A DNA stretch of 32,162 nt, taken from NCBI GenBank assembly GCA_016223045.1, contig JACRPT010000007.1, positions 1 to 32,162 of the forward strand, in the 5' to 3' direction. Below, in pieces: positions 11,713-16,651 of this stretch. The notes under the pieces were generated by a model. The model was not told the DNA's origin, made no database searches, and was given only the letters and a program-made list of their open reading frames with translations. How positions within the stretch are numbered: position 1 is the first letter of the stretch; every line of letters begins with the position of its first letter. This DNA comes from Candidatus Eiseniibacteriota bacterium (GTDB lineage Bacteria > Eisenbacteria > RBG-16-71-46). A program made the translations under genes and the position numbers.

Positions 11713-11739
11713 CCGAGCGGGCGGTTCAGACAGTATGGA

Positions 11740-11869
11740 ACGACCGGCCTGCGGTCGTATGGTCGTGCTCTCGCGAACGAGAGGCACGATGGTGGCGGGG
11801 ACGCCGCCACACACGATCGCGGGTTAGCACCTCGCGGCGCCAGAGCCGCATACGAAGGAGGCCGGTCGT
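11740..11869 (+). ncRNA. Highly structured 5' leader of the IS, multi-branch RNA that includes the RBS and start codon
   Basis: Closing stems ACGACCGGCCT/AGGCCGGTCGT (11740-11750/11859-11869) and TCGTATG/CATACGA (11755-11761/11849-11855) enclosing three hairpins (11763-11789, 11792-11810, 11818-11836). Confidence 0.5.
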
Positions 11870-12986
11870 GGACCCGAAGGGTATCACCTGGGTGGGCCTG
11901 GACACACACCAGAACTCGAACAAGGTGGCGGCGTTCTTCCCGGAGCGCCCCGAGCCGGTCGAGTGGCAGGAAGCGACCACGGTCGAGGCGGTCCGGCGGC
12001 TGGCGCGCAAGCTGCGGCGCGAGGCCCCGGGCGAGGTGCGGTGCTGCTACGAGGCGGGGCCGACCGGCTACGCGCTGCAGCGGCAGCTCCGGGCGGAGGG
12101 CATCGCCTGCACGGTGGTGGCGCCCTCGCTGACCCCGGTCAAACCCGGGGTGCGGATCAAGACCGATCGGCGTGATGCCCGCAAGCTGGCCGAGCTGTTC
12201 CGCGCCGGGCTGCTGACCGAGGTGCATCCGCCGAGCGAGAGCGACGAGGCGCTGCGCGACCTGTGCCGCTGCCGGGATGACGTGCGGGTCGACCTGCTGC
12301 GCGCGCGCCACCGGCTGAGCAAGTTCCTGCTGCGGCGCCACTGCCTCTACCGCGAGACCCAGCATCACTGGGGCACCCGCCACCTGGCCTGGCTCGAGCA
12401 ACTGCGCTTCGACGACCCGATCAGCCAGGCCACCTTCGACAGCTACTTCCTCGCCATCCAGCAGCTCGACGAGCGGCTGCGCCAGCTCGACGCGCGGCTC
12501 GCCGAGTTCGGAGCGCAGGAGCCGTACCGTGACCCCGTGGCGTGGCTGCGCTGCTTCCGCGGCATCGACACCGTGACCGCGGTGTGCCTGGTCGCCGAGC
12601 TCCACGACTTCCGCCGCTTTCACTCCGCGCGCCAGCTCATGTCCTACGTCGGACTCGTACCGAGCGAACACTCGAGCGGGGAGCGGGAGCGCCGCGGCTC
12701 GATTACCAAAGCCGGCAACGGGCACGTCCGCCGCCTGCTGGTGGAAGCGGCCTGGCATCAGCGACACCGGCCCGCGATCAGTGCCCCGCTGCGACAGCGG
12801 CGCGAGGGACAGCCGGCGCGCGTGCTGGCGATCGCCGACCGCGCCCAGGAGCGACTCGCCGCCCGCTATCGTCGCATGACGCTTCACGGCAAGGTGCATC
12901 CCAAGACCATCGTCGCCATGGCGCGCGAGCTGACCGGCTATCTCTGGGCAGTCCTCCATCCCGCGGCCGTGGCGACGCGGAACTGA
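11868..12986 (+). CDS. IS110 family transposase (DEDD plus Transposase_20)
   Basis: VGLDTHQ, CYEAGPTGYALQR, IKTDRRDARKLAEL, FRGIDTVTAVCLVAEL, SYVGLVPSEHSSGERERRGSITKAGNGHVRRLLVEAAW. GTG start, RBS AAGGAGG at 11855. Confidence 0.95.
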   Translation: MDPKGITWVGLDTHQNSNKVAAFFPERPEPVEWQEATTVEAVRRLARKLRREAPGEVRCCYEAGPTGYALQRQLRAEGIACTVVAPSLTPVKPGVRIKTDRRDARKLAELFRAGLLTEVHPPSESDEALRDLCRCRDDVRVDLLRARHRLSKFLLRRHCLYRETQHHWGTRHLAWLEQLRFDDPISQATFDSYFLAIQQLDERLRQLDARLAEFGAQEPYRDPVAWLRCFRGIDTVTAVCLVAELHDFRRFHSARQLMSYVGLVPSEHSSGERERRGSITKAGNGHVRRLLVEAAWHQRHRPAISAPLRQRREGQPARVLAIADRAQERLAARYRRMTLHGKVHPKTIVAMARELTGYLWAVLHPAAVATRN

Positions 12987-13036
12987 ACTCGAGCAAGCAA
13001 CCCACGTGATGCGAGGTGACGGATGAAGGTCGGCAC

Positions 13037-13262
13037 GATCCGGAGGACGCGCGACTGCGCTGTGCGATACGGACGAAGTCGGTCCCCAACTCGCGATCTC
13101 AGAGAGCGGACCCTCCCGACGGATCACAGTCATGCGGCTCTGGCCGGGACGCCGACGCAACCCGCGAATACTAGCGTGACTCGTCGTCGAAGCGCCCGAC
13201 CTTCTCCGTCCCTCGGCCTGGCAGGCCCAACACTGCGGCCACTTCCCGGAGGAAGTGGCCGC
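13037..13262 (+). ncRNA. Candidate bridge RNA / seekRNA region in the 3' non-coding part of the IS
   Basis: About 300 bp of non-coding sequence between the transposase stop and the right IR, where IS1111-type elements encode their guide RNA. Inverted repeats GATCCG/CGGATC (13037/13120), GTCGG/CCGAC (13078/13116) and a 12-bp hairpin at 13235. Confidence 0.4.
13235..13262 (+). repeat. Perfect 12-bp stem, 4-nt loop hairpin GCGGCCACTTCC-CGGA-GGAAGTGGCCGC
   Basis: Read directly; lies 26 bp before the right IR. Confidence 0.7.
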
Positions 13263-13300
13263 CTGGAGAGAAAAGTGCCTTGACGTAGGGTCGTTCCATA

Positions 13301-15358
13301 CTAGAGCGTGAGCGCGTGGCTCCCGGCGCCGAGCGTGCCGACCTCGCGCGAGAGGACGCGCCGGCCCGCGAGGTCGAACAGCTCGAGCGTGGCGGACCCG
13401 GACCCGGACCCGGACCCGGACCCGGACCCGGACCCACCTCTGGTGGGTGCCCCGGTGGGTGCCCCGACCTGCGCGGGGTGCGGGTGCCCCGGTGCCCCGA
13501 CCTGCGCGGGGGCACCCGAAGGAGTCGGGACCGGGTGCCCGGGCGCCCCGACGTCCGGCAGGGTGAACCAGACCACGAGCGCGCCCGACGCCGGATTCGG
13601 CCGCGCGCCGGCCAGCGCGAACGCCGCGCCGTCGGGCACCTCGACCCAGGTCTCGCCGGCGTGCGCCGCGGCGCCGCCCGCGGCGATCGCCAGCCGGTAG
13701 CCGTAGCGCGCTCCCGGCGTCACGTCGCGGTCCTCGTACGCGACCATGCCCGCGCCGTCGGGCAGCGCGCGCGCGACCGCGCTCCACGCGGAACCGGGCG
13801 AGTGGCGCTCGATCACGACCGGAGCGCCGCCGCTCACGTTCCAGCGCAGCAGCACGCGCTCGCGCGTGGCGTCGGCGCTCACCAGCGATGCGAGTGCGGC
13901 GACCACGCCGTTCGAAGTGACGCGCGCGGCATAGATGTCGCCGGCGTTCCCCGCGCGCTGGTCCTGCCACGCCACGATGGCGCCGGCCGCGCCGTCGCTC
14001 ACGATCACCGGCGCGCTCTGGTCGCCGGTCGCGTTGCAGATCGCCGCGCCGTTCGCGGGCCAGCCCGCGACGACGGCGCCCGCGCCGGTCACGTGCTGCG
14101 CGTAGATGTCGGCGCCTGCGCCGCGAGCGTCGCTCCACGCCACCACCGCGCCCCCGCTGCCGTCCGCGACCGCGACCGGCTCGAGCTGGTCGCCCGCCGC
14201 GTCGCACAGCGCGGCGCCGTTCGCGGGCCAGCCGGCCGCGATGGTCCCGCCGCCCTGCACGTGCTGGGCGACGATGTCGGCGCCGCCGCCGCGCAGGTCG
14301 CTCCACGCCACGAGCGCGCCGCCCGCGAGATCGCGGACCGCGACCGGGTGCGCGTCGCCCACGGCCGCGGTCGAGAGCGGCACGCCGTCCGCGGTCCAGC
14401 CGGGGTAGAGCGCGCCCGCGTCGGTGACGCGCACGGCGTAGATCCCGGGCGACACGGCGCGCGCGTCGAGCCACGCCGCCACCGCGCCGCTCGCTCCGTC
14501 CGCCGCCAGCGCCAGGTGGTTCTGGTCGCCCGCGCGCGTGCACAGCGGCACCCCGGTGGCGAGCCAGCCCGCGGCGATGGTCCCGGCGCCGGTCACGTGC
14601 TGGGCGTAGAGGTCGGCCTCGGTCCCCGCGCCGCCATCGCGGAAGTCGCGCCAGGCGACGATTGCGCCGTTAGCCTCGTCGGAGATGAGCACCGGGTCGG
14701 TCTGGTCGCCGGATGCGCTGCCCGCGGCGCGGCCGTTGATTGGCCATCCCGGCAGCAGGTCGCCGCGGGAGTCGAAGCGCACCAGGTAGACCTTCACCAC
14801 CGAGCCGGCGCGGTAGTCGGCCCACGCCACGATCGCGCCGCCCGAGCCGTCCGGCACCACCGATGGCGCGAACTGGTCGCCGGGGGCGTTGCAGACGGCG
14901 AGTCCGTCGGCGGGCCAGCCCGGCGCAGCCGCGCCCGAGGCGAGCAGGTGCTGCAGGTAGATGTCAGGCAGCCCGTCGCGCGGGTCCGACCAGGCGATGA
15001 AGGCGCCGCCCGCGGCGTCGCTGGCGATCGCCGGCTGCGTCTGCTCGCCGGCCGCGCCACAGACCGCCATGCCGTTCACGGGCCAGCCCGCGACGCGCTG
15101 CCCGAGGCCGTCCAGACGCGCGAGATAGAGGTCGTAGTCCACGCCGCCGCGCAGGTCCTTCCAGCCCACCAGCGCGCCGCCCGCGCCGTCGGCGGCCACG
15201 AACGGCGCGCGCTGGATGAAGAACGCGTCGCTGACGACCGGCACCCCGTTCGCGGTCCACGCGGTGTCGGCCGTCGCCGCCGCGCGGGCGTTGGGAGCGA
15301 GCGCGGCGGAGAGCGCGAGCGCAAGGACTGGCGCAGCGATGGCGCAGTATTGACGCAT
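13301..15358 (-). CDS. Secreted repeat (beta-propeller-like) protein with FlgD-like C-terminal domain, 3' end truncated at the IS boundary
   Basis: Signal peptide MRQYCAIAAPVLALALSAALAPNARA; eight repeats of about 48 aa (P-V-SDG-GGAIVAWxDxR...DIYAQHV...GWPANGxAxCNAxGDQ); ends ...ATLELFDLAGRRVLSREVGTLGAGSHALTL* with the stop TAG built from the IR. Confidence 0.8.
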   Translation of the reverse strand: MRQYCAIAAPVLALALSAALAPNARAAATADTAWTANGVPVVSDAFFIQRAPFVAADGAGGALVGWKDLRGGVDYDLYLARLDGLGQRVAGWPVNGMAVCGAAGEQTQPAIASDAAGGAFIAWSDPRDGLPDIYLQHLLASGAAAPGWPADGLAVCNAPGDQFAPSVVPDGSGGAIVAWADYRAGSVVKVYLVRFDSRGDLLPGWPINGRAAGSASGDQTDPVLISDEANGAIVAWRDFRDGGAGTEADLYAQHVTGAGTIAAGWLATGVPLCTRAGDQNHLALAADGASGAVAAWLDARAVSPGIYAVRVTDAGALYPGWTADGVPLSTAAVGDAHPVAVRDLAGGALVAWSDLRGGGADIVAQHVQGGGTIAAGWPANGAALCDAAGDQLEPVAVADGSGGAVVAWSDARGAGADIYAQHVTGAGAVVAGWPANGAAICNATGDQSAPVIVSDGAAGAIVAWQDQRAGNAGDIYAARVTSNGVVAALASLVSADATRERVLLRWNVSGGAPVVIERHSPGSAWSAVARALPDGAGMVAYEDRDVTPGARYGYRLAIAAGGAAAHAGETWVEVPDGAAFALAGARPNPASGALVVWFTLPDVGAPGHPVPTPSGAPAQVGAPGHPHPAQVGAPTGAPTRGGSGSGSGSGSGSGSATLELFDLAGRRVLSREVGTLGAGSHALTL
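13394..13435 (-). repeat. (GGACCC)7 hexanucleotide microsatellite encoding (GS)7
   Basis: Seven perfect units read directly. Confidence 0.95.
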
Positions 15359-15535
15359 GGGGAGCTCCGGGGCCGGGGGAGATGCGCGACGATGATACGA
15401 CACGGCTCGCCCGGCGCGGAACGGCGATGCGCCGGCGCCGCGTCGAGCTGGAGTGCCTGCGCTATGATGCCCGGGCCCGGAGCGGCGCCGCTGCGACATG
15501 CGACGCGCCGTCCGTCCGGTCAGCGGAGGGGTTCC

Positions 15536-16519
15536 ATGAAGGGCGCTCTCGCGGTTTGCCTGGTCCTGGTCGCGCTCGTCCTCAGCGGATGCAGCGACCG
15601 CCGGCGCGTGGTCGTTCCCGAACCCGCGGCCCGCATGAAGGGCATCACGCTCACGCCGCGCAGCTTCTCGGACGCCGACTTCGCGGAGTTCTGGCAGAGG
15701 GCGAAACTGGCGGGCTCGGTCGTCACCTGGAGCGGCGACTGGATGGAGCTGGCCGACACGGTCGCGGGCGGCCCCAAGGTGACGACGGAGGTGGCAGCGG
15801 CCAACCAGCTCGTGCCCATCGTCGAGGCGCAGTTCTTCGATCAAGCCTCCGGCGCGCTGCTGCGCCCGCTCGACGCCGCGAACCGGGCGGCCTACAAGCG
15901 CAGCGCGGCGCGGTTCGCGAGCACCTACCACCCGGCCTACCTGGGATTCGGGATCGAGGTCAACGTGCTCTACGAGAAGTCGCCCGCGGACTTCGACGCC
16001 TTCGTCCCGTTCTTCGCCGAGGTGGCCGACACGGTGAAGGCGGTCTCGCCGGGCACCAGGGTGTTCACCATCTTCCAGCTCGAGCTGATGAAGGGGCTCC
16101 GTGGCGGCCTGTTCGGCGGTGTCAATGACACGACGAGCGCGGAGTGGGCGCTGCTCGACCGGTTCCCGGGCTCGGACCTGGCCGCGTTCACCACCTACCC
16201 GGCGCTGGTCTTCCACGACCCCGCGGAGATCCTCGAGGGCTACTACGCGCAGATCGCCGCGCACACCACGAAGCCGGTCGCGTTCACCGAGATCGGCTGG
16301 CACAGCGCGGCGGTCCCCGTGGGCTGGGAGAGCACGGAGGAGGAGCAGAGCCGGTTCGTGACCCGGTTCTTCGAGCTGACCGCGGGCCTCGATCGCAGGT
16401 TCGCGGTGTGGAGCTTCCTCTACGACCAGGTGGCGCCGGTGCCCTTCGACAGCATGGGGCTCATCCGCCTGGACGGCGTCGCGCGGCCCGCGTGGGGACA
16501 GTGGGTGGCGGCGCCATAG
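15536..16519 (+). CDS. Lipoprotein, glycoside-hydrolase-like TIM-barrel type
   Basis: Lipobox VLSGC; FGIEVNVLYEKSPADFDAFVPFF, PVAFTEIGWHSA resemble GH-type barrel strands. Confidence 0.65.
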   Translation: MKGALAVCLVLVALVLSGCSDRRRVVVPEPAARMKGITLTPRSFSDADFAEFWQRAKLAGSVVTWSGDWMELADTVAGGPKVTTEVAAANQLVPIVEAQFFDQASGALLRPLDAANRAAYKRSAARFASTYHPAYLGFGIEVNVLYEKSPADFDAFVPFFAEVADTVKAVSPGTRVFTIFQLELMKGLRGGLFGGVNDTTSAEWALLDRFPGSDLAAFTTYPALVFHDPAEILEGYYAQIAAHTTKPVAFTEIGWHSAAVPVGWESTEEEQSRFVTRFFELTAGLDRRFAVWSFLYDQVAPVPFDSMGLIRLDGVARPAWGQWVAAP

Positions 16520-16534
16520 CGGGGTGGTCCCGAT

Positions 16535-16651
16535 CATGCCCGAGACGCGGGGGGCGTCGAGCCGCGGGCCCCAGGGCAGGAGGGTCCCCGTGCTGGCGTC
16601 GAGCGCCGCGAGGTACGACCTCGGCTGCCAGTCATGAGGGCTGGCGAAGTC
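16535..16651 (-). pseudogene. Fragment of a delta-60/PQQ-like repeat protein
   Basis: Minus strand reads DFASPHDWQPRSYLAALDASTGTLLPWGPRLDAPRVSGM, close to the delta-60 motif RxxLAALDAxTGxLLPWxP; no start or full ORF. Confidence 0.5.

What the first reader, a model, noticed from the sequence alone, without database searches (positions are those of the whole stretch)
12987..13288. Candidate seekRNA/bridge RNA in the 300-bp 3' non-coding region
IS1111-subgroup elements (subterminal IRs, as here) carry their guide RNA between the transposase stop and the right IR. This region has no convincing CDS but has nested inverted repeats (GATCCG/CGGATC, GTCGG-TCC/GGA-CCGAC) and a perfect 12-bp hairpin just before the right IR.
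Basis: partly seen in the sequence, partly recalled or inferred. Interest (0 to 1): 0.7.

Follow-up and report, generated by a model that had tools for sequence, protein, structure and literature searches.

The report
Stop-codon-targeting insertion sequence guide RNA
The non-coding tail of this bacterial jumping gene encodes a conserved guide RNA, and in relatives that RNA appears to steer the element into the stop codons of a large family of secreted-protein genes, where the element's own end supplies a new stop codon and the host protein is left unchanged.

Summary
The RNA is about 193 nt (window 13018-13210). It is closed by a long stem and carries a target-binding loop and a donor-binding loop. 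An alignment of 13 related elements gave 15 of 32 pairs with compensatory changes. Guides in the loops match each element's own flanks: RTG p<5e-6, LTG p=8.5e-5, donor guide concordant in 14/14. An element left out of the model agrees.

The targets were unexpected. Of 38 right ends defined without using the stop, 36 place an element-borne TGA/TAG directly after host sequence, and 33 of these close a long open frame, mostly genes with FlgD-like/T9SS-like sorting tails. The left flank carries what looks like the original stop codon. So the element appears to insert between the last sense codon and the stop, and to donate a replacement stop. RNA expression and transposition are inferred, not shown. 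In the window copy itself the host gene's tail looks truncated, so its right junction is atypical.

The parts
11729..13303 (+). IS1111-type insertion sequence (ends as inferred here: left GACAG..., right ...CCATACTA)
   Evidence: boundaries inferred from guide matching, no circle junction or empty site seen
11726..11728 (-). TCA on the + strand = TGA: probable original stop codon of the host gene, left at the far end of the element
   Evidence: 21 of 24 left ends of the clade have TCA/CTA/TTA here (counted); matched by the LTG and by the last two letters of the RTG
11732..11745 (+). left subterminal inverted repeat AGTATGGAACGACC
13289..13302 (-). right subterminal inverted repeat
11868..12986 (+). 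transposase (372 aa, DEDD type), GTG start
   Evidence: D12, E62, D100, D103 invariant, GLVPSEHSSG motif
13018..13210 (+). guide RNA (seekRNA/bridge RNA), about 193 nt, closed by stem P1 (13018-13033 with 13196-13210)
13042..13116 (+). target-binding loop domain (P2 GGAG/CTCC, inner stem)
13053..13062 (+). RTG guide GACTGCGCTG: sense copy of target gene end plus first two letters of its stop codon
13096..13105 (+). LTG guide ATCTCAGAGA: copies the left flank across the stop (TCAGA)
13117..13186 (+). donor-binding loop domain (P3 GACG/CGTC, inner stem GCGG/CCGC)
13167..13174 (+). LDG donor guide AATACTAG: copies the right end CATACTAG
   Evidence: CTA/TCA concordant with the right end in 14 of 14 elements
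13235..13262 (+). perfect 12-bp hairpin between the RNA and the right end; similar hairpins with different sequence in relatives; role unknown
13280..13285 (+). TTGACG, candidate -35 box of a promoter formed when the ends join in the circle
   Evidence: TTGAC-like in most relatives; no complete promoter in the linear element
13301..13303 (-). CTA on the + strand = TAG: stop codon supplied by the element's right end to the host gene
13301..16537 (-). host ORF closed by the element's TAG (true start uncertain; C-terminal tail about 30 residues shorter than homologues)

Best explanation
The region encodes an IS1111-type guide RNA of about 190 nt. Its target-binding loop carries two guides: one copies the last codons of a target gene plus the start of its stop codon, the other copies the opposite strand across that stop. 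Its donor-binding loop copies the element's right end. With the transposase, the RNA most likely brings the circular element to the stop codon of a host gene and inserts it there. The original stop then lies at the far left end, and the right end supplies a new in-frame TAG or TGA, so the host protein is unchanged. Shown from sequence: RNA structure, guide/flank matching, position of right ends at stop codons. Inferred: transcription, binding to the transposase, transposition, exact element boundaries, and neutrality for the host.
For: RNAalifold on an unforced alignment of 13 elements: 32 pairs, 15 with compensatory changes; helix counts 97.6% paired, 52 double-change cells against 14.1 shuffled. 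RTG vs own target: none of 200,000 permutations as good; LTG vs own left flank p=8.5e-5; LDG vs own right end 14/14, p=9e-4. Only one register works. Element G045:C1142, left out of the model, agrees. 36 of 38 right ends, defined without using the stop, carry TGA/TAG at the junction and 33 close a long frame. Targets are FlgD_ig/Por_Secre_tail genes, 98 FlgD_ig matches in this genome. Transposase family and motifs.
Against: No RNA or transposition data. Elements are related, so permutation values are optimistic. Helices and the guides were set by hand, though the unforced alignment shows the same. The right donor guide is not clearly matched. The fold of the single window sequence is not above chance. 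The window's own right flank matches the RTG in only 3 of 8 positions and its host gene looks truncated. No empty site or circle junction was found, so which triplet belongs to the element rests on guide matching.
Confidence: 0.88

Rival explanations
1. Guide RNA as above, but the right-end TAG/TGA is the target's own stop: the element inserts just downstream of stop codons and donates nothing, and the left triplet is part of the element.
For: Both triplets are constant among copies within one genome (e.g. G000 left TCA x3, right CTA x3), so copy comparison alone cannot assign them.
Against: The contiguous RTG ends in two letters that match the left triplet in 9 of 10 elements but the right triplet in only 1 of the same 10. 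The left triplet pairs with the guide in the same loop as the RTG, and the right triplet with the other loop.
Confidence: 0.1
2. The element inserts with looser specificity and only insertions at stop codons survive; the guide RNA matters less for the stop-codon bias than selection does.
For: Purifying selection would give the same bias. The window copy sits at a poor guide match.
Against: Selection does not explain the match between each guide and its own target, nor the concentration on sorting-tail and WGxLKxLYR gene ends rather than any stop codon.
Confidence: 0.1
3. The 3' region is only conserved terminal DNA (transposase binding sites or a transcription terminator), with no guide RNA.
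For: There is a strong hairpin near the right end and subterminal DNA of transposons is often conserved.
Against: Compensatory changes in six helices, guides that diverge together with their targets, and no T-tract terminator.
Confidence: 0.02

Closest known systems
IS1111-family seekRNA (ISEc11, ISPa11, ISKpn4, ISPst6; PMC11187229)
   Same: DEDD transposase, subterminal repeats, guide RNA in the NCR downstream of tnp, top-strand complement 5' of bottom-strand match, the two matches overlapping in the target, natural retargeting among relatives.
   Different: Targets here are stop codons of multicopy tail genes, with a stop supplied by the right end. The inferred RNA (193 nt) is longer than the reported 70-100 nt and 145-170 nt forms; processing here is unknown.
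IS110/IS621 bridge RNA (PMC11208160, PMC11208158)
   Same: Target-binding and donor-binding loops, each with a guide on either strand of the loop; RNA-guided recombinase of the same superfamily (IS621 8wt6 and ISCro4 9t56 are the only PDB matches).
   Different: IS621's RNA is upstream of the gene; here it is downstream and the target guides are in the opposite order. The right donor guide is unclear here.
ISEc21 (IS110 group), which targets codons of IS3-family transposase genes (PMC11187229)
   Same: A multicopy protein-coding motif is used as a repeated RNA-guided target.
   Different: Its target lies within the coding sequence (the codons around a catalytic residue); the elements here lie at the stop codon and appear to leave the protein intact.

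Membership tests
IS1111 family | DEDD transposase with PF01548 and PF02371 domains and a GL-P----S(T)G motif | tested here: met
   D12, E62, D100, D103 invariant among 9 relatives; GLVPSEHSSG in the window. Length 372 aa is above the reported 330-350 aa.
IS1111 family | Subterminal inverted repeats of about 11-13 bp, perfect or nearly so | tested here: met
   14 bp perfect in the window; 12-bp core shared across the clade.
IS1111 family | Terminal extensions of 7 (or 6) bp left and 3 bp right | tested here: inconclusive
   From the 12-bp core, right = 3 bp (CTA/TCA). Left = 5 bp if the left triplet is target, 7 if two of its letters are counted to the element; needs a circle junction.
IS1111 family | Longer non-coding region downstream of tnp | tested here: met
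   About 300 nt downstream against about 120 nt between left repeat and start codon.
[quoted passage not shown]
   RTG before LTG in all 14 elements, both matching own flanks. Sequence evidence only.
IS1111 family | RNA co-purifies with the transposase and is required for movement | not testable with these tools
   Needs an experiment.
Bridge RNA | Two-loop RNA: target-binding loop and donor-binding loop with guides on both strands of each loop | tested here: inconclusive
   Both loops are predicted. Three of four guides are supported; the right donor guide is not clearly matched.
Rfam families | Match at gathering score | tested here: not met
   No match in the window.

The most novel reading that the evidence does not exclude
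A clade of RNA-guided insertion sequences in Eisenbacteria has specialised on stop codons. The guide reads the last codons and the stop of multicopy C-terminal tail genes, the right end donates a replacement stop so that insertion is protein-neutral, and guides have been retargeted from sorting-tail ends to a second tail family (WGxLKxLYR*) while staying on the stop codon.
Probability: 0.75. Interest if true: 0.7.

Novelty: new variant of a known kind. Interest (0 to 1): 0.62.

Why it matters
It would give a natural example of a programmable RNA-guided recombinase that avoids harming its host by swapping stop codons, with dozens of possible landing genes per genome. It also supplies a set of naturally retargeted guide/target pairs from which pairing rules for the IS1111 group could be derived, and suggests a route to seamless insertion at gene ends.

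Tried and rejected
Rfam scan: nothing. Single-sequence folding: not above chance (z -0.91). GATCCG/CGGATC pairing: not kept in relatives. RTG placed at other registers: much worse. Direct antisense pairing between the RNA and the tnp leader as a general rule: 13 nt in G000, G045 and G042, but at chance in G004 and G034 and not clearly above it in the others. Intrinsic terminators or complete sigma-70 promoters inside the element: none. Right donor guide: only partial matches by eye, left open. The one genome-contig scan gave a single relative. Literature searches for insertion sequences that target stop codons found none in the held library, which is not proof of absence. An empty site for the window copy was sought through homologues of the host gene; only diverged paralogues came up.

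Full report
What is there. The window holds one complete IS1111-type element. The transposase is at 11868-12986 (Pfam DEDD_Tnp_IS110 and Transposase_20; NCBIfam IS110 RNA-guided transposase). A perfect 14-bp subterminal repeat lies at 11732-11745 / 13289-13302, and a 12-bp hairpin at 13235-13262. Other copies in the same genome are cut by contig ends, leaving left ends on C145 and C141 and right ends on C99 and C70. A relative found by name is a Candidatus Eisenbacteria genome. Relatives were gathered by DNA, protein, repeat-pattern and RNA-model searches of the class.

The RNA. Aligning the 3' regions shows an RNA at 13018-13210. MAFFT plus RNAalifold, with no structure imposed, gives a closing stem P1, a first loop domain (GGAG/CTCC, CGC/GCG, inner stem TGCGR/YCGCG) and a second one (GACG/CGTC, inner stem GYGG/CCRC); 15 of 32 pairs show compensatory changes. 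Counting hand-set helices: 97.6% paired, 52 double-change cells against 14.1 shuffled and at most 7 in slid registers. In 9 of 13 elements the longest helix in the region is a P1 helix of 9-15 bp, 11 bp or more in 8 of them, against a shuffled mean near 7; only some of these exceed every shuffle. A covariance model finds the RNA in 17 of 47 genomes of the class, including places not used to build it.

Guides. Ten nucleotides 5' of the inner stem of the first loop (RTG, GACTGCGCTG here) match the sense strand at the end of the gene to the right of each element: 68 of 112 positions against 40 expected, none of 200,000 permutations as good. Only this register works (63 against at most 41). Examples: G017 RTG GATTCCGCTA against target GCTTCCGC|TA; G024 GAAGATACTA against GTTGATAC|TA; G045 GAGTTCGTTG against TCGTTCGC|TG. 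The 3' strand of that loop (LTG, ATCTCAGAGA) matches the left flank (p=8.5e-5), and the 3' strand of the second loop (AATACTAG) matches the element's right end, CTA with CTA and TCA with TCA, in 14 of 14 (p=9e-4). An element left out of the model, G045:C1142, has RTG GTCTCCGTTA and target end TGCTCCGC, with TCA at both donor guide and right end. Because the elements are related, these probabilities are indicative, but the guides have clearly diverged together with their sites.

Targets. Right ends were defined by the repeat and the following -35-like box, without regard to stops. 36 of 38 have TGA or TAG immediately outside the 12-bp repeat core, and 33 of these close a frame open for at least 80 codons or to the end of the DNA. 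Most host proteins end in a FlgD-like / T9SS-type sorting tail, of which this genome has 98 FlgD_ig matches. A second group (G009, G010, G015, G017, G006) ends in WGxLKxLYR or close variants. Left ends read [TCA/CTA/TTA]GA.. in 21 of 24 (counted). The RTG's last two letters match the left triplet in 9 of 10 elements but the right triplet in only 1. So the left triplet is best read as the target's original stop and the right triplet as a stop carried by the element. Insertion then exchanges the stop and leaves the protein unchanged. In L054 (G024) the right triplet is also TCA although the site is not a gene end, so the stop-like right end may be older than the stop-codon habit (inference).

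The window copy. Its right flank matches the RTG in only 3 of 8 positions, and the host ORF ends '...GAGSHALTL', about 30 residues short of homologues. The left flank is the end of a convergent DUF2079 gene. This junction may be an off-target insertion or a later deletion; the C70 and C99 copies are canonical.

Comparison with what is known. Transposase motifs, subterminal repeats, downstream NCR, guide order and overlapping matches agree with IS1111 seekRNAs (PMC11187229), and the two loops with the bridge RNA model (PMC11208160). The left extension length is unsettled. The stop-codon target and the donated stop were not found in the papers held. Steps not shown: transcription, protein binding, transposition.

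Noticed in passing
window 11817-11851; tnp leaders in L046-L055: The tnp leader just before the ribosome-binding site holds TCGCGGGTTA...CAGAGCCGCAT, an inverted copy of part of the donor-loop scaffold of the guide RNA (13-nt perfect complement ATGCGGCTCTGGC in G000, G045, G042). Its own stem covaries in distant relatives (GCGG/CCGC, GTGG/CCAC, GTAG/CTAC), so it may be a separate structured leader. Role unexplained.
   Followed up: partly
window 11740-11750 with 11859-11869: ACGACCGGCCT next to the left repeat pairs with AGGCCGGTCGT over the tnp ribosome-binding site and start; clearly above chance in G000, G004, G042, G045 and G042b, with changed letters. Possible translation block on transcripts entering from outside.
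   Followed up: partly
L061, L091, L095, L096 (G031) and others: Right ends outnumber left ends in the class, some with no RNA or transposase nearby. Decayed copies may keep the right end because it holds the host gene's stop codon.
   Followed up: no
L034 around 1500-1561 (G043): A right-end remnant after a tail gene carries a GC hairpin followed by TTTTTT on the gene's strand, which looks like a terminator for the host gene.
   Followed up: no
window 13301-13620 (- strand): Host gene tail contains a run of GGACCC repeats (coding GSGSGS) and stops about 30 residues before the usual end of the sorting tail.
   Followed up: partly
L046 1501-2613 (G004): The transposase of this close relative has one in-frame TAG, although its RNA and ends look intact.
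   Followed up: no
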